This document shows, piece after piece, positions 1 to 11,864 of a DNA stretch of 11,864 nucleotides; the first letter of the stretch is position 1, and each line of letters begins with the position of its first letter. Source of the stretch: Deltaproteobacteria bacterium (lineage in GTDB: Bacteria > Desulfobacterota > Desulfobacteria > Desulfobacterales > JAFDDL01); assembly GCA_019310865.1 (NCBI GenBank), contig JAFDDL010000082.1, positions 1 to 11,864 on the forward strand, written 5' to 3'. The notes under the pieces are model-generated. The model searched no databases and was not told the DNA's origin. It saw only the letters and a list, made by a program, of their open reading frames with translations. The position numbers and the translations under genes were made by a program.

Positions 1-354
1 TATTGTGTGGCGGACGAGGATATTGATGAGTTCACAGACACCTTTGCTAAACGGGTGGCGTTGATGCCATGGCAAGTATCAACTCAATACAAGAGAGCTA
101 TGAAAAAGGCATATGAAATGATGGGAATCCGAACCGCTATGGAAACGTGTTCTCAATTTACTTTTCATAGAACTGCAGATACTGAATATGTAAAAAAAAT
201 GTACGAAATATTGTGGACAAAACCTCTCACGGAATATCTAACAATCCGGGACAAGCCATATCAGGACTATCGAACTGCGGAGGAAGCAATATTGGCGCGC
301 GCTGAAGGAAGAACTCATAAACGGGAGAAAGCTATGGATAGTAAAAATAAATAA
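1..354 (+). CDS. Crotonase (enoyl-CoA hydratase/isomerase) family protein, C-terminal part only
   Basis: The reading frame is open to the left edge, so the gene starts outside the window and about 117 C-terminal residues are visible. The visible part fits the helical C-terminus of the crotonase fold: an acidic 'ADEDIDEF' helix start, then 'AKRVALMPWQ', then a lysine-rich helix (QYKRAMKKAYE). In this family that stretch follows the 'GLVDRVV' segment. The tail after it, with 'RDKPYQDYRTAEEA', resembles the C-terminal extension of crotonases that end in an 'RD-x-P-F/Y-x-D-Y' stretch. The oxyanion-hole and catalytic residues lie upstream and cannot be judged. It ends 10 bp before the next gene, which has its own ribosome binding site, so the two are probably cotranscribed. 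The family call is by pattern recognition; the substrate is unknown. Confidence 0.72.
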   Translation, partial: YCVADEDIDEFTDTFAKRVALMPWQVSTQYKRAMKKAYEMMGIRTAMETCSQFTFHRTADTEYVKKMYEILWTKPLTEYLTIRDKPYQDYRTAEEAILARAEGRTHKREKAMDSKNK

Positions 355-2599: not shown

Positions 2600-2795
2600 T
2601 GAAGCTGGAATCGGTCATCCGCGTTCCAGGTCTCCGATGCGTGAAAACCGGTGTGAACATACCCTGGGCACAATGCCTGTACGCTGATTCCATATTCTTT
2701 CACTTCCAGTTGCAGCGTTTCGGAAAAACTATTGATGTATGCCTTTGTAGCGCCATAGGATAATGAAGACGGGACGTAAAAAAAGGCTGATATGG
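2600..2795 (-). pseudogene. Short-chain dehydrogenase/reductase (SDR), C-terminal fragment
   Basis: On the minus strand a reading frame encodes 'YVPSSLSYGATKAY', then '...SETLQLEVKEYGI', then 'SVQALCPGYVHTGFH'. This is the catalytic YxxxK helix (Tyr codon 2755-2757, Lys codon 2743-2745) followed by the 'PG-x-V-x-T' strand of a classical SDR. The N-terminal Rossmann half with its glycine-rich NAD(P) loop is absent. Its place is taken by the start of an MFS transporter gene (junction near 2790-2800). Past about 2600 the frame merges with the antisense of the thiolase 3' end, so the natural C-terminus is also lost. No start codon or ribosome site fits. It is a relic of an SDR gene that may once have belonged to the leftward operon; the homology is clear although the piece is only about 65 residues. 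Confidence 0.75.
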
Positions 2796-3004
2796 ATAAA
2801 CATTGGGGCCATCAGGCCTACCAACAGGTTACTCAGCCCCAGTGCAAGTGAAGCAGGTCCCCGGGCCCATCCCATATCGGTGACTAAAGCCGGAAAGATA
2901 ACGGTGGGAGAATACATAACACACCCAACTAGAAACATGATGATGAGAAAAAAGATCACGTTTCTTCATCCGACAAACTTTTCTGCCTGTTTTTTGGCAT
3001 CCAT
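2796..3004 (-). pseudogene. MFS transporter, N-terminal fragment with in-frame TGA
   Basis: The start is the ATG at 3002-3004, with AGGAG 7 bp before it. It encodes MDAKKQAEKFVG, then TGA (2966-2968), then in the same frame 'RNVIFFLIIMFLVGCVMYSP' and on through 'VIFPALVTDMGWARG' and 'SNLLVGLMAPMF'. This is typical first-helix and loop sequence of a major facilitator transporter that expects a partner helix. A Trp (TGG) at the TGA position would give the familiar 'GWRN' opening, so a single transition explains the stop. After about residue 69 (near 2798) the homology ends abruptly and an SDR fragment begins. About 340 residues of a normal MFS protein are missing. The gene begins 39 bp after the flavoprotein stop and was probably the next cistron of the same operon. 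Confidence 0.75.
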
Positions 3005-3043
3005 TCGTCGCTCCTGCTTGTTACTCGATTATTGCTGGATAGA

Positions 3044-3790
3044 TTATCGGTTCCTCGCTTCATCTATGGACTGCCGGATGAACTTATTGGCGAATTCATG
3101 CTGTTCTTCTACTGAATAGGGCACAAAATCACGGCTGACGATTTTGAGCGTCTCGGGAGACATCTTTCCTTCTTGAACAAGCTGACGACCGGCCTCTTTT
3201 GCGGCATCGAATATGTCATCGACCGGAACACCCATTTCTTTCATGGGCATGAGCATAGGACCACTTGGGCGCAGTAATGCGCCGGCAAATTCTAGAGGTT
3301 TCCCATTTTTGAGAATACGCTTGCAATAGTTCGCAAATTGGTGAAGCAATGCATCGAAATTTTCGAGCTCCGGAAAACCACAATTCGAGATCAGAACGAT
3401 TTTGCTGAGATTGACCGTATTACGCAGGGGGTGTGCGGAATAGCCATTGTATAACTCGAAGAGCCCCGAGGATAATGGACTCTCTCTGTCTATAATGCGC
3501 TTCATTGTGGAGGTCATTCCTTCGCAATAAAGCGGTGTTGCGTACACACAGATGTCCGCTCCCCCCCACTTTGGGTAGATCCACTGCATATCATCCTTAA
3601 TAATACATTCGCCAGGCTTCTTTAAAATACAATGAAACTCGCCTTCACAGGGTTTGACCTTTAATTTTTTCGTATAGAACAGTTCTACTTCGGCTCCTGC
3701 TTCTGTTAGACCATCAAGGAAAGGAGCAAGGATTAAATGGGTGTTGCCTTTATCCATATTGGGGCTGCTATTGAATGCTATTACCTTCAT
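3044..3790 (-). CDS. Flavodoxin-fold NAD(P)H-dependent FMN oxidoreductase (iron-sulfur flavoprotein-like)
   Basis: A 248-residue protein of the NADPH-dependent FMN reductase / Isf-like family. Residues 1-17 hold the phosphate-binding loop (MKVIAFNSSP..KGNT). Residues 48-68 hold a Cys-rich segment ending in 'GECIIKDDM', then 'ADICVYATPLYCEGMTSTMK' and 'IIDRE', all standard for the family. True iron-sulfur flavoproteins have four compact Cys ligands. Here Cys48, Cys54 and Cys62 are present but the expected middle ligand is Glu51, so a [4Fe-4S] cluster is doubtful and FMN alone more likely. The start at 3790 has a strong AAGGAGGA site. The gene lies 15 bp after the aminotransferase stop, which indicates one transcript. 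The likely role is flavin-dependent reduction of an organic substrate or electron carrier in the cytoplasm; the substrate is unknown. Confidence 0.82.
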   Translation of the reverse strand: MKVIAFNSSPNMDKGNTHLILAPFLDGLTEAGAEVELFYTKKLKVKPCEGEFHCILKKPGECIIKDDMQWIYPKWGGADICVYATPLYCEGMTSTMKRIIDRESPLSSGLFELYNGYSAHPLRNTVNLSKIVLISNCGFPELENFDALLHQFANYCKRILKNGKPLEFAGALLRPSGPMLMPMKEMGVPVDDIFDAAKEAGRQLVQEGKMSPETLKIVSRDFVPYSVEEQHEFANKFIRQSIDEARNR

Positions 3791-5295: not shown

Positions 5296-7536
5296 CTAGA
5301 ACCTATACCCAATATTAAAACCAAACGTACGCGGGGAGGGTGATGTTTCAGTAACCAAGGACCCATAGAATGTGCCGCTAATACTTCGCCATATAGGGTC
5401 ATCATTATCCTGAATGTTTCTAACAAACATCTTAGCGTACCACTTTCCTTCAAAACTTTCATAGTTCAATGTAACATCAGTTTTGATATAGGCTTCCAGC
5501 TCGTCAATCGTTTTATTGAATGCTCTGGTGTAAATTTCATCCTGCCAGTAAAAGTCAATGCGGGGGGTTAAAAATCCCCATTTTCCCATATCCACCGTGT
5601 ACTGGGCGTTGAGTTTCACTGTCCATTTGGGAGTTTTTGGTAATTGATTGCCGGATAGATCTTCCACTGCCGTTCCCGGTATAGAAGAATCATCGGAACG
5701 ATATTCATCAAAAGTTGCATCCAAAAATGCCACACTACCACCCAACTCAAAACCGCGTGTTGGACGGCCTATCAAATCCAGTTCAAAGCCCTGAATCGTC
5801 GCTTTTGCTGCATTGGTCGTCGCTCTGGTAAGGTCCTTCCAGGTCATAAGCTGCAGATCTGTATATTCACTGTAATAAGCTGAAAAATTGACCTGGAGGC
5901 GATTGTCCAGAAACTTGTTTTTTGATCCTGCCTCGTAAGAAAGGACATATTCAGGATCATAGGTGTTTAATCCTGCTAACCCTTGACTCGTGCCGCCGCC
6001 CTTGTAGCCGCTGGCGACGGATGTATAGAGAAAATTTTGGTCAGACAACTGGTAATCGATGATACCTTTCCATGTAGTTTCATTCCAATCCTGTTCATAC
6101 TCATATTGCATTGGATAAAAAACACCGGAACCGTAATCAGCCGGATTGTAAGTAATAAAGACCCATGGAATAAAAACATCATATACACTCTTTTTTTTAT
6201 CTTTGGTATATCTGATCCCGCCGGTCAATTTCAACTTATCGGTTAACTCATACGATGCCTGAGCATATCCAGCATATGATTGATTATCGATTTTTTGGTC
6301 GGCGGCATAGCCATCAAGTATAGCACCCGGTCCACCATTATAATCATTGCTCTCTTCATCAAAGTAAAATAAACCGGTTATAAATTCAAAAGGGCCGCCA
6401 AAGGCCGATATCAGCTGCAATTCCTGAACCCATTGATCTCTTGCTCTTTTATACTCCATGTTTTGAATGTATTGATCGGAATGATCTAAATCATTAAGGG
6501 CTTTATACTTCTCCTTGTGATTTGCCGTTAAAGAGGAAACAACAACTCCACCAAGATTCCAGTTCAATTTTAAATATAAACCCTCAAAGGAGTTATTTTC
6601 GTCATTATCCGTATCCTCTCGTATTTCACGCGGATCTTTCGCCCACTTAGCATTTGTATATTGGATGCCATTCCAAGTACCTACGGTGGGAAAAGCTGGA
6701 ACTAAGATTCCTGTCTGGAAGTTACCGATAACATTTTTTGCCGGTACTCCGCCCTTATAATCTTCCCTTGTGTAGCTCAATAGAACGTCAATATTCGGCG
6801 TAATTAACCATTGTAAATGCCCGCGAAATGACCGGCTGTCTATGCTATCAACCGGATTTCCCGTCGTAAGATTTTCAGTATATCCATCTCGGTCTTCTGT
6901 CTGCCAGGCGGTCCTGAAATGGAGCTTGTCCTTTTTAATGGGTATGTTAATCGCGCCTCGTGTTCTGAGCATGTCGTAGCTCCCACCTAAAACATCTGCA
7001 TAACCCTCAAACTCAGATGTCGGTTTTTTTGTAACATAGTTGATAGCTCCACCGGTTGCATTTCTTCCATACAGGGTGCCTTGGGGTCCTCTCAGCACCT
7101 CGACACGCTCCATGTCAAAAATGGGTTGGGAGGCTGCAAAAGAGCCCTTTTGATAGACACCGTCCATATGAAACGCAACGCCCCCATCAGCTCCGACAGA
7201 CCCTATATCAGTACCGATACCGCGAATCCATATCTTCGACCAGGTACGGTTTCCGGCGAATTGCGAATTCATTCCCGGTACGTTGTCCTGAAGAGAATAT
7301 TGATCCAAAATACCCTTCCCGTTCAACATGTCATCATCAAAAGCCGTGATGGCAACAGGTGTTTGCTGGACATTGGTTTCACGCTTTTGTGCAGTCACAA
7401 TGATCTCTTCAAGAATGTAATCTTTGGAGGATTCTTCCTGGGCGGATTCATCCTGGGCGGATACCGCGGAAAACGCACTTAATACCATCCCCATTGACAA
7501 TAGAACCGTCAATACCATCAATGCTGATTTCTTCAT
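5296..7536 (-). CDS. TonB-dependent outer-membrane receptor
   Basis: A 746-residue receptor for energised uptake across the outer membrane. Residues 1-27 form a signal peptide (MKKSALMVLTVLLSMG..., cleavage after VSA). An acidic spacer follows, then a TonB box in 'LEEIIVTAQKRE', the plug domain with 'NVPGM', 'IRGIG' and 'VEVLRGPQGTLYGRNATGGA', and a long beta-barrel ending in 'FGFNIGYRF' with the C-terminal aromatic residue needed for barrel assembly. There is no N-terminal STN signalling domain, so it is not a FecA-type transducer. The plug style ('VTAQKRE...TPVAITAF') is that of receptors often found beside catabolic genes. The ATG at 7536 has a good AAGGAG site. It is probably transcribed from the sigma54-type promoter about 250 bp upstream under the adjacent activator. 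The ligand is unknown; neighbouring aminotransferase and flavoprotein genes suggest an organic, possibly nitrogenous compound. Confidence 0.95.
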   Translation of the reverse strand: MKKSALMVLTVLLSMGMVLSAFSAVSAQDESAQEESSKDYILEEIIVTAQKRETNVQQTPVAITAFDDDMLNGKGILDQYSLQDNVPGMNSQFAGNRTWSKIWIRGIGTDIGSVGADGGVAFHMDGVYQKGSFAASQPIFDMERVEVLRGPQGTLYGRNATGGAINYVTKKPTSEFEGYADVLGGSYDMLRTRGAINIPIKKDKLHFRTAWQTEDRDGYTENLTTGNPVDSIDSRSFRGHLQWLITPNIDVLLSYTREDYKGGVPAKNVIGNFQTGILVPAFPTVGTWNGIQYTNAKWAKDPREIREDTDNDENNSFEGLYLKLNWNLGGVVVSSLTANHKEKYKALNDLDHSDQYIQNMEYKRARDQWVQELQLISAFGGPFEFITGLFYFDEESNDYNGGPGAILDGYAADQKIDNQSYAGYAQASYELTDKLKLTGGIRYTKDKKKSVYDVFIPWVFITYNPADYGSGVFYPMQYEYEQDWNETTWKGIIDYQLSDQNFLYTSVASGYKGGGTSQGLAGLNTYDPEYVLSYEAGSKNKFLDNRLQVNFSAYYSEYTDLQLMTWKDLTRATTNAAKATIQGFELDLIGRPTRGFELGGSVAFLDATFDEYRSDDSSIPGTAVEDLSGNQLPKTPKWTVKLNAQYTVDMGKWGFLTPRIDFYWQDEIYTRAFNKTIDELEAYIKTDVTLNYESFEGKWYAKMFVRNIQDNDDPIWRSISGTFYGSLVTETSPSPRTFGFNIGYRF
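7429..7458 (-). repeat. 15-bp tandem duplication in the receptor gene
   Basis: Two adjacent 15-bp units (GGATTCTTCCTGGGC and GGATTCATCCTGGGC, + strand) differ at one base. They encode a doubled AQ(D/E)ES in the mature N-terminus, just after the signal peptide. The duplication is in frame and probably neutral. Confidence 0.8.
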
Positions 7537-7572: not shown

Positions 7573-7592
7573 TTTGTCGGAAATCCGACAAA
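7573..7592. promoter_or_regulatory. 20-bp dyad in the receptor leader (TGT-N10-ACA type)
   Basis: TTTGTCGGAAATCCGACAAA is a perfect 9-bp inverted repeat around AA, 37 bp upstream of the receptor ATG. It fits the TGT-N10-ACA pattern of NifA-type enhancer sites. As RNA it would fold into an 8-bp stem with a 4-base loop just before the ribosome site. No T-run follows on either strand, so it is not a terminator. It shares the half-site TTTGTCG with the dyad at 7951-7970, arranged in the opposite order. Confidence 0.6.
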
Positions 7593-7785: not shown

Positions 7786-7801
7786 AGCAAACTTTGTGCC
7801 A
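7786..7801 (-). promoter_or_regulatory. Sigma54 (-24/-12) promoter for the TonB-dependent receptor
   Basis: The minus strand reads TGGCACAAAGTTTGCT, an exact match to the sigma54 consensus TGGCAC-N5-TTGCW with correct GG-to-GC spacing. Transcription should start near 7775, giving a leader of about 240 nt before the receptor ATG. The nearest downstream gene on that strand is the receptor, and the gene upstream encodes a sigma54 activator. Confidence 0.8.
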
Positions 7802-7841: not shown

Positions 7842-7950
7842 TAAAATTCGGCCGAGAGCGATGGGATTAATAATTTTGATATTTCGGGACAATGACGATA
7901 TGTAGAGGGTGTGGTTACGAATCAGACGATACACTGTGTACGAAACGCGT

Positions 7951-7970
7951 ATCGACAAAACTTTGTCGAT
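7951..7970. promoter_or_regulatory. Upstream activator (enhancer) dyad for the sigma54 activator
   Basis: ATCGACAAAACTTTGTCGAT is a perfect 9-bp inverted repeat around AC. Its centre is about 185 bp upstream of the predicted start from the -24/-12 promoter, the normal range for an enhancer-binding protein site, and it lies 17 bp beyond the stop codon of the activator gene. A smaller palindrome (TACAC-T-GTGTA, 7930-7940) is adjacent. On the minus strand it could also fold as a hairpin at the end of the activator mRNA, but no T-run follows, so a regulatory site is preferred. Confidence 0.6.
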
Positions 7971-7987: not shown

Positions 7988-10900
7988 CTAAACCACCTGC
8001 ATAGCTGCCTGTTCTTTACTGATGTTGAACTTTTTCATCTTCGAATATAGTGTTTGGGGATGGATATCAAGAATTTCCGCTGCACCGCCGGGGCCAAAAA
8101 TTTTCCCCTGTGTCTTCTTGATCGCTCGAATAATATGACGACGTTGAATCTCTGCGAGTGTGATTACCTGGTTCTCGGGAGCCGCCTGCAAGTAGCCCTT
8201 CTTTAGATCAGGTGTTTTAAAACGATCACCGACACTTAAAATAATACCCCGTTCGATGACATTTTCCAATTCTCTAACATTTCCCGGCCAATCATAAGAC
8301 ATTAACCTTTCCATGTCAGCCGCTGAAATTTTTCCTACGGATTTTCCAAATTTTTCCGCATAATTTTTCAGAAAATACTGGACCAACAAGGGGATGTCTT
8401 CAATGCGGTCTCGAATGGGTGGTACATGGATGGGGAACACGTTCAGCCTGAAAAAAAGATCCTCACGAAATTTACCCTCGTTGATGAGTTTTTGAAGGTC
8501 ATGATTCGTGGCAGCCACCAGGCGAAAATCAGAATAAAGCGGTTTCCGCCCCCCCACCCGCTCAAACTCTTTGCTTTGGAGAACCCTCAACAAACGGATC
8601 TGGACTTCCATGGAAACATCGCCGATTTCGTCAAGAAACAAGGTGCCTTTATCGGCAAGTTCAAACCGGCCCAATCTTTTATCTGTGGCGCCGGTAAAGG
8701 CACCCTTTTCGTGGCCGAAAAGCTCACTGGCAATGAGGGTGTCCGGAAATACACTGCAATTGACCCGAATAAATGGTCCATCCTTTCTCGGGCTACTTCG
8801 ATGGATAGCCCGGGCTATCAATTCTTTACCGACACCGGTCTCTCCCTGAATCAGAACAGCCGCATCGGTACCAGAAACGCTGTCCACTTCTTTCAATACA
8901 CGCATGAGAGCGGCACTTTTCCCGACGATTCCCTCAGAGTGGATGCTGTCAAGGTGTTGTTCTTCAAAGTATTTCTTTTCCTCTTTAAGTTTCCGGGTCA
9001 GGTTATTTATCTCTTCATAGGCGTTTGCATTGTCCATTGCAATGGATGCTTGTGCCGCAAAATACTGGAGGATTTCAAGATCGGTTTTTTTGAAATGATT
9101 CGAGAACAGGCGGTTGTCATGATACAGTACTCCAACCACTGCGTCCATGTATTTCATCGGAACACAGATGCAGGATTTGATAACTCTGGATTGAGGGATG
9201 ATTTTTTTCTGACCCGGGTTTATCTTAAACACGTAACCATCGCCGGTCGAAGCGACTTTTTGAATCGCCTCCATGGAAAATTGAAAGTTTGGGTGGGTAA
9301 TATCTTCGGCAACCAGGTTTCTTGCAGCTCTAAGTTTTAACTTAGGTGAAGGCGCGTCCTTATCGATGATGAAAATGGCGCCACGCTCCGCGCCGGTGAT
9401 GTGATTTGCCCTTGAAATGATGTGATGAACCAGTTCTTTATTGTCCCTGATCGTCGTTATCTGCTGACTAAACATCATGATTTCCTTAAGAAGATCACGG
9501 TTCGCGTGCAGATTCTTGAAAGCTATACTCAAATCTTTTGGAATCAAGTCCACTCCGATTGAATGGACGATCTCTTCAAGCTTCTTGCTTGCCTGAAGCG
9601 CCTTATTCTTTGACCCTACTGCCGAGTATTCTTTTGAAAGCTCCAGCAGCGCACTTGCTATCGCTGACTTGTTCCCGGATTTCTTGCGCCACTTGACTGC
9701 ATTTTCAAAGGTCTGAATTGTTTTATCAGATGGATTTCCATTGCGCCGAAGAAGCAGGCCCTTGTAATAATAGCCGCTCCCCATGCTCAAAATATTCTTA
9801 CTGCGAATCGATCGCTCAATTTCTGTTTTTATGGAAAGATTTCCGACACGAGGCAGCTCACCCAGTTCCATTGCCCAACACAGCTCAAGCAGCGCCGTAT
9901 AGGGAATATTGAACATGTCTCCCCTTTTAACCTTTCGGAGATATTTTTTCAGGTAGCTGACACTATTTTCCGTTTGCTTTTTAAGATAATATGCCCAAGC
10001 CAATTGCGTCAAGATGGTGGTTTCCACCCAGTGGTTCGATATGCCGATGGCCGTTTGAAGTCCCAAGTCCAGGTAAATCAATGCCTCATCCACTCTGCTG
10101 TACCAGAGAAGGAGACTTCCAAGGGCATGGCATGTCTGGCATAAAATATACTTGTCTCCGCTTTCTTTGCTATAGTTATAAATCGAATCCACCAGGCCAA
10201 AGCCTTGGGTCGCCTGTCCGGTTAATATGTAAGATACACCGATATACACGGTCGCCATCAACGAAAAATGCCCATGAGGATATATTTCCACATCCTCCAT
10301 AATCATTTCATAATGGTTGACGACATCTTTAAGCCGCCCCTGGTAATATAGATAAAATATGTGAAATGCAGCAGACGCGCGTCGTAGACGGTCATCATCT
10401 ATTGCATCCGACATTGAAAAGCCGCGTTCAAAGTGCTTGAGAGCGTTGGCATGGTTCGAAAGGAACCATTCATTCTTTGCCAGGTTCAGCTCCAAAAGAA
10501 CGGCTTGCCCTTTAAAACCTTTGCTTTCCGCTTTTGCAAGTGCATTTTTCAGAGCCGGTATTATTTCATGTGAATTGAGCGTGGCTTCGACTAGTTTGGA
10601 TGAGTTAATTACCGCCTGAATATAAAGACGAACTTCATCATCGCCTTCTTTATCTTTTAGAGCTTCCATAATTTTTGAGTGACACGCATAGGCATCTCCA
10701 TAACGGCGGGCAAACCGATAAATGTCACCGGCTTTTAAAAGAAGCTGACAATGAGACAAATCATTATCAAGATGTAAAAGGTGATTGGCTATAGAAAGGA
10801 TCTTTTCATCATTATCGTTTGGATTTCTCAGTAGAATATTTGCGATTTTTTTATGCTTGAGCGCTTTTTCCTTAATGTCAAAAGTATCCTGAAACTGAAC

Positions 10901-11560
10901 TTTTTGTTTTTCGTCTTTAAAGCAAAATTCCCCCGCGCTTTTTCTTGTGAGTATTTCTTTATTAATCGCTTTTTCAAAGGCTGAAAGAATTATCGAAGCG
11001 CTCAATTCTGTCAGTTCGATAATCCAATCTATGGAAAATGATCCTTCAAAAAGAGCGGCAACCGACATTATTTTATGAAAATCGTCAGGGATCGGTTCGG
11101 GTTTTTCATGTTGATTTGAAAAAAGGGGGGTGATTGCAGGCTCAACCGTATTGAAACTTTGGGCGAGAGCATGGATAAATCCTTGATCATCCATATCGCG
11201 CTGGATTTTATTAAGCATCCTTCGGGCCGCATGGTAATTGAGACCAATTTTATCGGACAGCTTCTTTATCGTTAGATCTTCCTTTTGGCTTTTGGTTAAA
11301 TGGATCGCCCAAAACCAATAATACAGCGGGGTTCGCGTGCCATGCATTATTGTACCCGCAGTAACCGAGGTCTGGTGGTGGCATCTTTTACAGTGAAGCA
11401 GAAATCGCTTTGGCACCTCGTAGTATTCGTTATGGCCACACGATGGGCAGACGAATCCGTTCGGCCATCGGACCTTAAGAAGATGTGCGCGGCATGCCTG
11501 TTCTGTTGAAAATCTTTTTCTAAGCACTTCAAGTAACATCTTGTTATCTAAGTTACTCAT
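7988..11560 (-). CDS. Sigma54-dependent activator with IS1595-type transposase zinc-ribbon head, TPR, GAF, AAA+ and Fis HTH
   Basis: A 1190-residue protein. Residues 1-125 match the N-terminus of IS1595-family transposases: zinc ribbon Cys38-x2-Cys41 and Cys57-x2-Cys60, then 'TSVTAGTIMHGTRTPLYYWF', then a helical 'LSDKIGLNYHAARRMLNKI' segment. The DDE nuclease that should follow is absent. Residues about 160-240 resemble the winged helix that follows STAND ATPases, then TPR-like helices run to about 690. A GAF sensor (about 700-850), a charged coiled linker and a complete sigma54 AAA+ domain follow: Walker A GETGVGKE (about 905), GAFTGA (about 953, for sigma54 contact), Walker B 'GTLFLDEIGD', 'FREDLFFRLN' and 'WPGNVREL' (about 1090). 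A Fis-type HTH (about 1157-1180, 'AEILDIHPQTLYSKMKK') ends it. The ATG at 11560 has AAGGAA 6 bp upstream; the longer frame from TTG 11575 would absorb that site. It probably activates the receptor promoter; the signal is unknown. Confidence 0.9.
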   Translation of the reverse strand: MSNLDNKMLLEVLRKRFSTEQACRAHLLKVRWPNGFVCPSCGHNEYYEVPKRFLLHCKRCHHQTSVTAGTIMHGTRTPLYYWFWAIHLTKSQKEDLTIKKLSDKIGLNYHAARRMLNKIQRDMDDQGFIHALAQSFNTVEPAITPLFSNQHEKPEPIPDDFHKIMSVAALFEGSFSIDWIIELTELSASIILSAFEKAINKEILTRKSAGEFCFKDEKQKVQFQDTFDIKEKALKHKKIANILLRNPNDNDEKILSIANHLLHLDNDLSHCQLLLKAGDIYRFARRYGDAYACHSKIMEALKDKEGDDEVRLYIQAVINSSKLVEATLNSHEIIPALKNALAKAESKGFKGQAVLLELNLAKNEWFLSNHANALKHFERGFSMSDAIDDDRLRRASAAFHIFYLYYQGRLKDVVNHYEMIMEDVEIYPHGHFSLMATVYIGVSYILTGQATQGFGLVDSIYNYSKESGDKYILCQTCHALGSLLLWYSRVDEALIYLDLGLQTAIGISNHWVETTILTQLAWAYYLKKQTENSVSYLKKYLRKVKRGDMFNIPYTALLELCWAMELGELPRVGNLSIKTEIERSIRSKNILSMGSGYYYKGLLLRRNGNPSDKTIQTFENAVKWRKKSGNKSAIASALLELSKEYSAVGSKNKALQASKKLEEIVHSIGVDLIPKDLSIAFKNLHANRDLLKEIMMFSQQITTIRDNKELVHHIISRANHITGAERGAIFIIDKDAPSPKLKLRAARNLVAEDITHPNFQFSMEAIQKVASTGDGYVFKINPGQKKIIPQSRVIKSCICVPMKYMDAVVGVLYHDNRLFSNHFKKTDLEILQYFAAQASIAMDNANAYEEINNLTRKLKEEKKYFEEQHLDSIHSEGIVGKSAALMRVLKEVDSVSGTDAAVLIQGETGVGKELIARAIHRSSPRKDGPFIRVNCSVFPDTLIASELFGHEKGAFTGATDKRLGRFELADKGTLFLDEIGDVSMEVQIRLLRVLQSKEFERVGGRKPLYSDFRLVAATNHDLQKLINEGKFREDLFFRLNVFPIHVPPIRDRIEDIPLLVQYFLKNYAEKFGKSVGKISAADMERLMSYDWPGNVRELENVIERGIILSVGDRFKTPDLKKGYLQAAPENQVITLAEIQRRHIIRAIKKTQGKIFGPGGAAEILDIHPQTLYSKMKKFNISKEQAAMQVV

Positions 11561-11622: not shown

Positions 11623-11638
11623 CGCAATAATAATGCCA
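11623..11638 (-). promoter_or_regulatory. Sigma54-like promoter of the activator gene
   Basis: The minus strand reads TGGCATTATTATTGCG, which matches TGGCAC-N5-TTGCW except at the last base of each block, with exact spacing of the key GG and GC. A start near 11611 would leave a leader of about 50 nt before the ATG at 11560. It suggests that the activator is itself sigma54-dependent and perhaps self-activated. No dyad like those at 7573 and 7951 is seen upstream of it. Confidence 0.45.
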
Positions 11639-11706: not shown

Positions 11707-11864
11707 TCATCGTTAGAATCTTTTAAACTGATAAAAGCCGGTGCACAACTTGCTGTGCGCTTGCTGGGTTTTCCTTTCCCTGTAATAATCGCCTGCAACG
11801 GGCACTGTATCGCTTTGGCCGCCTTGCTGCTTCTGTCAACCGATTACCGTATCGGTGCGATCGG
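11707..11864 (+). pseudogene. Crotonase (enoyl-CoA hydratase) family fragment, 5'-truncated, runs off the right edge
   Basis: In this frame a stop at 11704-11706 is followed by a segment with 'KAGAQLAVRLLGFPFPV', 'IIACNGHCIALAALLLLS' and 'TDYRIGAIG'. This is the central part of a crotonase (usual form 'P-x-P-V-x-A-x-x-GHA-x-A-x-G-A-x-LLL-x-x-DYRIG'). The first 60-75 residues, including the first oxyanion-hole loop ('FSAGFDL' type), are missing. No ATG, GTG or TTG start lies in frame between the stop and the homology. The second oxyanion glycine (A-M-G-A in relatives) is Ala here (A-L-A-A). Both features suggest a dead or rearranged gene. The downstream part is outside the window, so its fate cannot be judged. 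It is divergent from the activator gene. Confidence 0.68.

What the first reader, a model, noticed from the sequence alone, without database searches (positions are those of the whole stretch)
11170..11560. A transposase DNA-binding head fused to a sigma54 enhancer-binding protein
The N-terminal 125 residues carry the IS1595-type zinc ribbon (CPSC...CKRC), the 'VTAGTIMHGTRTPL' turn and the helical 'AARRML' segment. The fusion point lies just before the DDE nuclease would begin. The rest is a complete GAF-AAA+-Fis activator, so the protein has two separate candidate DNA-binding modules. This looks like domestication of a transposase end-binding domain as a regulatory targeting module, and I do not know of a described system with this layout. 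The zinc ribbon might recognise transposon-end-like DNA, or might have become a redox or metal sensor.
Basis: partly seen in the sequence, partly recalled or inferred. Interest (0 to 1): 0.85.

Follow-up and report, generated by a model that had tools for sequence, protein, structure and literature searches.

The report
Transposase-headed sigma54 activator protein
A bacterial gene-switch protein carries at its front the DNA-gripping part of a jumping-gene enzyme without the cutting part, and the same borrowed part sits on a second, different kind of switch protein, which suggests that bacteria reuse transposase parts to aim gene regulators.

Summary
The fusion is real. One frame (window 11560-7988, minus strand, 1190 aa) starts with the N-terminal DNA-binding part of an IS1595 transposase (zinc ribbon plus helix-turn-helix, residues 1-135) and lacks the DDE nuclease. 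P0003 has the same layout; P0004, a partial record, has it up to AAA+ (64-66% identity), so an assembly error is very unlikely. The same head fronts a second architecture (Ser/Thr kinase, AAA_16 ATPase, GAF, sigma54 AAA+, Fis). The 12 heads found form one clade (100/99) apart from 70 transposases and share a change in the recognition helix (R113 in 12 of 12 heads; W in 85 and R in 5 of 109 transposases). The AAA+ domains of the two architectures do not form one clade (p-AU 0.017). The window's two exact -24/-12 sites lie before the activator and before a TonB receptor. Most likely the head is a domesticated DNA-targeting module on a one-component sigma54 activator. Its DNA target is unknown and untested.

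The parts
11156..11560 (-). Transposase-derived head, residues 1-135 (N-terminal helices, zinc ribbon, helix-turn-helix)
   Evidence: AlphaFold2 mean pLDDT 89.0, pTM 0.80
11372..11506 (-). Zn_ribbon_IS1595 (PF12760), residues 19-63; cysteines 38, 41, 57, 60
   Evidence: all four Cys in 12 of 12 heads
11192..11326 (-). Helix-turn-helix of the head, residues 79-123; lineage-specific Arg at 113
   Evidence: helices 79-91, 98-105, 109-123; NF033547; R113 in 12 of 12 heads, W in 85 and R in 5 of 109 transposases
11087..11149 (-). Linker predicted disordered, residues 138-158 (fusion point)
   Evidence: pLDDT under 50
10919..11083 (-). Winged-helix-like stretch, residues 160-214 (assigned by eye from the order of helices and strands)
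   Evidence: H160-168, H177-184, H188-200, E204-208, E211-214; hhalign of residues 158-690 with the part of type B proteins behind the AAA_16 ATPase: prob. 81, E 1.2e-5 over 139 columns at the N-terminal end
9452..10876 (-). TPR-type helical region, residues 229-703
   Evidence: PF13424 E 1.2e-11 for the whole protein, no single repeat significant alone; helical hairpins
9035..9439 (-). GAF domain, residues 708-842
   Evidence: PF01590 E 4.4e-10
8426..8929 (-). Sigma54-interaction AAA+ domain, residues 878-1045, with GETGVGKE, GAFTGA, TLFLDE
   Evidence: PF00158 E 6.5e-69; motifs
8027..8161 (-). Fis-type helix-turn-helix, residues 1134-1178
   Evidence: PF02954 E 9.8e-7
11624..11638 (-). Exact -24/-12 (sigma54) match TGGC-N7-TTGC, its -24 GG 77 nt before the activator's ATG
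   Evidence: 0 of 20,000 resampled pairs had a match in both upstream regions
7787..7801 (-). Exact -24/-12 match TGGCACAAAGTTTGC, 264 nt before the TonB receptor's ATG
7951..7970 (-). 20-bp palindrome ATCGACAAA-N2-TTTGTCGAT, 150-169 bp upstream of the receptor's -24: candidate upstream activating site (inference)
7930..7940 (-). 11-bp palindrome TACACAGTGTA, 129-139 bp upstream of the receptor's -24: second candidate site (inference)
   Evidence: with up to 2 mismatches the motif is no commoner than chance (3 matches, mean 2.08 in shuffles)
7573..7592 (-). 20-bp palindrome TTTGTCGGA-N2-TCCGACAAA sharing the half-site TTTGTCGRW, between promoter and receptor ATG
5296..7536 (-). TonB-dependent receptor, first gene behind the second sigma54 site: predicted target
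   Evidence: PF00593 and PF07715
3806..5191 (-). Class III aminotransferase, same strand, 104 bp after the receptor
   Evidence: PF00202 E 5.3e-80
3044..3790 (-). NADPH-dependent FMN reductase-like flavoprotein, 15 bp after the aminotransferase
   Evidence: PF03358 E 6.8e-16

Best explanation
The gene encodes a one-component sigma54 enhancer-binding activator to which the DNA-binding N-terminus of an IS1595 transposase was fused, without the nuclease, and kept. Shown by sequence: the layout, its presence in relatives from other contigs, the single origin of the head clade among the rows sampled, its presence on two activator architectures, the kept zinc ligands with a uniformly changed recognition helix, an intact set of AAA+ motifs, and -24/-12 matches before the activator and before the TonB receptor cluster. 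Inferred: the TPR region and GAF domain sense a signal; the Fis domain binds upstream palindromes; ATP hydrolysis by a hexameric AAA+ ring opens sigma54 RNA polymerase at its own promoter and at the receptor promoter; and the head, on a flexible linker, is a second DNA-binding module that tethers the activator to an additional site, adding affinity, specificity or a DNA loop.
For: Domains and missing DDE. Same order in P0003 and, up to AAA+, in the partial P0004, at 64-66% identity. Single head clade, 100/99 against 70 transposases. Zinc ligands in 12 of 12 heads and most of the core kept; R113 in 12 of 12 heads against 5 of 109 transposases. Confident fold with helical N-terminus, ribbon and helix-turn-helix; linker disordered and domain order confirmed. 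AAA+ part of the model matches solved sigma54 activators such as DmpR and NtrC1. Two exact -24/-12 sites, both in sense intergenic positions; in 20,000 first-order resamplings of the two upstream regions none had one in each and 2 had two in all. Palindromes sharing TTTGTCGRW before the receptor: 5 matches in the window, 4 of them in the two palindromes; mean 0.62 in shuffles, 0 of 200 as many.
Against: No DNA target of the head is known or found. Putative IS1595 terminal repeats from three elements do not match the upstream regions above resampled sequence. No sequence motif is shared by the two sigma54 upstream regions above chance. The TTTGTCGRW half-site is missing before the activator's own promoter and was noticed after the fact; each palindrome counts twice. 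Close relatives P0005 and P0006 (65%) lack the head as listed, and on the AAA+ domain alone P0006 is the sister of the window's protein (98/84), so the head is dispensable, often lost or missed by gene prediction. The head varies more than the body (P0002 to P0004: 58% against 69%), and some core positions vary in some heads (R31 is C in 3 of 12, G69 is K or N in 3 of 12). No solved structure matches the head well.
Confidence: 0.6

Rival explanations
1. The head no longer binds DNA; it is a protein-protein or oligomerisation module (for example it keeps the activator inactive, or contacts RNA polymerase as some zinc ribbons do).
For: Changed recognition helix (residue 113 W to R, 111 T to A); close relatives listed without it (P0005, P0006); Foldseek lists a TFIIB zinc ribbon among weak matches (E 0.88).
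Against: Arginine in a recognition helix does not argue against DNA contact; the zinc ligands and helix-turn-helix scaffold are kept in all 12 heads; two activator lineages carry the same module.
Confidence: 0.22
2. The head is a metal or redox sensor: the four cysteines release zinc on oxidation or zinc shortage and switch the activator; the neighbouring TonB receptor would fit a metal-linked regulon.
For: Four cysteines in a ribbon, kept in 12 of 12 heads; the TonB receptor's best NCBIfam match is a siderophore receptor model, TIGR01783, below its cut-off.
Against: The cysteines are as conserved in transposases (C38, C41, C57 in 109 of 109, C60 in 108), where the zinc is presumably structural; TPR and GAF already provide candidate sensing.
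Confidence: 0.08
3. The head has no role: a neutral fusion on its way to loss.
For: Close relatives listed without it, some broken or truncated copies (P0049, P0051, P0052), faster change in the head than in the body.
Against: Kept cysteines, mostly kept core and a shared substitution across about seven distinct head groups at 42-68% identity, and presence on two architectures.
Confidence: 0.1

Closest known systems
Sigma54 enhancer-binding proteins of the FhlA/NifA/NorR type (GAF-AAA+-Fis)
   Same: AAA+ domain with GAFTGA, GAF, Fis domain, -24/-12 matches nearby; best NCBIfam models are FhlA (listed as FlhA), NifA and NorR, all below their cut-offs
   Different: Extra TPR region and winged-helix-like stretch, plus the IS1595 head at the front
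IS1595 family transposases (zinc ribbon plus DDE; PMC8101967, passages read)
   Same: Zinc ribbon, helix-turn-helix, most of the conserved core; the three nearest transposases are 47-52% identical to the window head over 107-125 residues
   Different: DDE domain absent; residue 113 and other positions changed in all 12 heads; heads separated from the 70 sampled transposases
Headless TPR-GAF-sigma54 activators (P0005-P0028)
   Same: TPR, GAF, AAA+ in the same order; 38-65% identity (which left out P0015)
   Different: No transposase head in their listed domains
Kinase-AAA_16-GAF-sigma54 proteins with the same head (P0029, P0050 complete; P0049 broken in AAA+; P0036, P0037, P0048, P0053 cut short)
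   Same: Same head clade, 53-58% identical to the window head; same C-terminal order GAF-AAA+-Fis where complete
   Different: Kinase and AAA_16 ATPase between head and helical repeats; AAA+ domain from another lineage
Transposase capture in eukaryotes (transposon-derived transcription factors, PMC10027918; Tc1/mariner HTH captured by F-box genes, PMC12062965; both seen only in the search listing)
   Same: DNA-binding domain of a transposon protein fused into, or made into, a host regulator
   Different: Here bacterial, IS1595, sigma54-dependent
TldR, RNA-guided transcription factors of phages (PMC13418256, listing only; their origin from transposon TnpB is recalled)
   Same: A transposon-derived protein turned into a bacterial transcription regulator
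   Different: RNA-guided, not a fused protein DNA-binding domain on an activator

Membership tests
Sigma54 enhancer-binding protein | Sigma54-interaction AAA+ domain | tested here: met
   PF00158 E 6.5e-69; Foldseek matches to DmpR, NtrC1, FlrC
Sigma54 enhancer-binding protein | GAFTGA loop, Walker A and B | tested here: met
   GAFTGA 953-958, GETGVGKE 906-913, TLFLDE 973-978; GAFTGA as common feature in PMC4641369 (passages); Walker assignments recalled
Sigma54 enhancer-binding protein | C-terminal Fis-type DNA-binding domain | tested here: met
   PF02954 E 9.8e-7
Sigma54 enhancer-binding protein | ATP-dependent activation at a -24/-12 promoter | not testable with these tools
   Promoter matches only
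IS1595 transposase | N-terminal zinc ribbon PF12760 with helix-turn-helix | tested here: met
IS1595 transposase | DDE_Tnp_IS1595 catalytic domain | tested here: not met
   No PF12762 match in the protein
IS1595 transposase | Element with terminal inverted repeats around the gene | tested here: inconclusive
   Only the two upstream regions were scanned; no IS-like ends seen there
Kinase-AAA_16 (STAND-like) regulator | Ser/Thr kinase and AAA_16 ATPase | tested here: not met
   Absent from the window protein; present in P0029, P0036, P0037, P0048-P0050
Kinase-AAA_16 (STAND-like) regulator | Winged helix followed by helical repeats behind the ATPase | tested here: inconclusive
   hhalign prob. 81, E 1.2e-5 over 139 columns in one comparison with a shallow type B profile (Neff 1.2); winged helix assigned by eye

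The most novel reading that the evidence does not exclude
A transposase end-binding domain was captured once in bacteria, retuned in its recognition helix, and then moved as a portable targeting module between distantly related sigma54 activators, so that transposon-derived DNA sites serve as enhancers for sigma54 promoters: a bacterial counterpart of eukaryotic transposase capture.
Probability: 0.35. Interest if true: 0.8.

Novelty: new variant of a known kind. Interest (0 to 1): 0.6.

Why it matters
Fusion of transposase DNA-binding domains to host regulators is known in eukaryotes; in the listings I saw no described case with a sigma54 activator. If the head binds DNA, these proteins have two addresses in one chain, and the headed and headless relatives make the contribution of the head directly testable. 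The uniform change at residue 113 suggests a defined, shared new specificity that could be read out by DAP-seq or SELEX. It would also add an N-terminal DNA-binding module to a well-studied activator class whose N-termini are usually treated as sensors.

Tried and rejected

Wider distribution: a scan of genome contigs with the single protein found only one relative, a 37% match of the AAA+/Fis part in a Methylotenera genome, so the relatives' own phylum could not be sampled. In 398 genomes of Methylotenera's phylum, PF12760 was over the cut-off in 75. The strong listed matches (E below 1e-6) lie in open frames of 80-576 aa. I opened the three frames of 500 aa and more among them: L005 and L006 read by eye as transposases with the frame read on upstream, L007 is a transposase with a GIY-YIG tail. 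Four listed matches lie in frames of 879-954 aa; they are weak (E 1e-4 to 4e-4), two of them counted as over the cut-off with their neighbours. I opened one of these (L008), which gave no complete ORF of 300 aa or more within its stretch, so its nature is unknown. No clear sigma54 fusion was seen in that sample, but the match list was cut. Viral contigs: one scan, none. Plasmids and phages: no record in which one place covers 80% of the protein.

Shared upstream motif of the two sigma54 sites: none above chance. Putative IS1595 ends in the upstream regions: none above resampled sequence. Rfam: no match. Whether P0005 and P0006 truly lack a head could not be checked on DNA. Type A heads as one clade are neither shown nor rejected (p-AU 0.381). 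Type A headed bodies as one clade have 86/77 on the whole body, SH-aLRT 75 in a quick tree, but are split on the AAA+ domain alone.

Full report
Observation. The minus-strand frame 11575-7988 is open for 1195 codons. An ATG at 11560 stands behind AAGGA, giving 1190 residues (P0002). Pfam finds Zn_ribbon_IS1595 at the front, TPR, GAF, the sigma54 AAA+ domain with its lid, and a Fis domain at the end. NCBIfam's IS1595 transposase model matches the head from residue 75 to 126 with positions 2-54 of 215, below its cut-off; the DDE domain PF12762 is absent. Pfam's TPR match is significant for the whole protein but not for a single repeat.

The head. Folded with 47 relatives it gives a confident model (pLDDT 89.0, pTM 0.80): helices 3-16 and 20-31, a two-stranded ribbon, and helices 79-91, 98-105, 109-123. 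No solved structure matches it well. A search with the head among proteins of 121 to 385 residues gave 262 relatives, 120 listed, 110 of these with PF12760 and PF12762. On plasmids 328 records match; of the 30 listed, 27 are annotated there as transposase and 3 have no annotated feature.

Relatives with the fusion. One search lists 46 proteins, the window's own included, some matching only in part (7997 candidates were scored). P0003 has the same order; P0004, listed as partial, has it from head to AAA+ (64 and 66% identity). P0005 and P0006 are as close (65%) but lack the head as listed, and P0007-P0028 (39-47%) lack it in their listed domains. A search with residues 1-135 among long proteins and brought a second architecture, type B: head, Ser/Thr kinase, AAA_16 ATPase, helical repeats, GAF, sigma54 AAA+, Fis (P0029, P0050 complete; P0049 broken inside the AAA+ domain; P0036, P0037, P0048, P0053 ending earlier). 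P0029 and P0049 report the same longest contig length, 160,141, so they are probably paralogues on one contig. P0051 and P0052 are short pieces with the same head.

Origin. In a tree of these 12 heads and the 70 best-ranked of 109 listed proteins P0054-P0170 of at least 270 residues, the heads form one clade (100/99) with a long stem (0.5). With 132 columns many other forks are open, and P0003 is a long branch. Against all 109 (108 of them with PF12762) the zinc cysteines and most of the core are kept; exceptions are R31 (C in 3 of 12 heads), V66 (L in 3) and G69 (K or N in 3). Several positions have changed together: residue 113 is R in 12 of 12 heads and W in 85, R in 5 of 109 transposases; residue 111 is A in 12 of 12 against 8 of 109. 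The 12 heads fall into about seven distinct groups, the rest being near-copies. The AAA+ domains of the two architectures do not group: holding the five headed rows (three type A, two type B, of 35 rows) together costs 20.2 log units, p-AU 0.017, with long branches in the set. Their winged helix and first repeats are distantly related (hhalign prob. 81, E 1.2e-5, shallow profile). So one domesticated head sits on two activator lineages, by two fusions or by transfer. For type A, headed bodies group with 86/77 on the whole body, while the AAA+ domain alone joins the window's protein with headless P0006 (98/84): gain and loss of the head cannot be ordered.

Local regulation. The sigma54 pattern TGGC-N7-TTGC (consensus recalled) has exactly two perfect matches in the window, both in sense orientation in intergenic DNA: 11638-11624 before the activator and 7801-7787 before the TonB receptor (with one mismatch, 14 matches are no more than chance). 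In 20,000 first-order resamplings of these two upstream regions none had one in each and 2 had two in all. The receptor is followed on the same strand by a class III aminotransferase and an FMN-reductase-like protein, a likely target operon. Before the receptor lie palindromes at 7951-7970, 7930-7940 and 7573-7592; the first and last share the half-site TTTGTCGRW (5 matches in the window, 4 in the palindromes, mean 0.62 in shuffles, 0 of 200 as many). The middle one, allowing two mismatches, is no commoner than chance. This was noticed after the fact and the half-site is absent before the activator, so these are candidates only. For D. vulgaris activators, three groups of motifs have half-sites TGT and ACA spaced 9, 11 or 12 bp (PMC4641369, passages).

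Mechanism. Shown: the parts and their conservation. Inferred: signal sensing by TPR and GAF, Fis binding to upstream palindromes, opening of sigma54 polymerase at its own and the receptor promoter, and tethering by the head to a further DNA site. The strongest points against are the lack of any identified head target, relatives listed without the head, and the faster change of the head.

Literature. Nine searches of the open-access library showed, in their listings, no description of an IS1595 head on a sigma54 activator (two searches listed 20 of 56 papers each, 8 of 793). Papers of most subscription journals and bioRxiv are not held. [quoted passage not shown] A survey of 37 D. vulgaris activators (PMC4641369, passages) names two-component response regulators, PAS and GAF, and two long N-terminal regions of unknown kind. 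Eukaryotic transposase capture was seen in search listings only.

Verdict. A real and inherited domain architecture that I did not find described, best read as transposase capture by a bacterial sigma54 activator; new variant of a known kind, interest 0.6.

Noticed in passing
L007:514-2208 (minus): A 564-aa IS1595-type transposase (PF12760, PF12762) with a C-terminal GIY-YIG nuclease domain (PF20815, E 1.2e-9): two nuclease folds in one protein.
   Followed up: partly
window 11707-11862 (plus): Piece of a crotonase/enoyl-CoA hydratase-like reading frame without its N-terminal part, directly upstream of the activator; assigned by eye.
   Followed up: partly
window 1-354 (plus): C-terminal piece of an enoyl-CoA hydratase family protein (weak PRK08290 match), so both window ends lie in crotonase-like frames.
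   Followed up: no
window 2600-3040 (minus): Overlapping remnants that look like an MFS transporter frame and a short-chain dehydrogenase frame, no intact gene seen (by eye).
   Followed up: no
window 7573-7592 and 7951-7970: Two 20-bp palindromes with the shared half-site TTTGTCGRW on either side of the sigma54 site of the TonB receptor.
   Followed up: partly
P0029 and P0049 (proteins, no window coordinates): Two headed kinase-ATPase-sigma54 proteins that report the same 160,141-base contig length; one is broken inside its AAA+ domain.
   Followed up: partly
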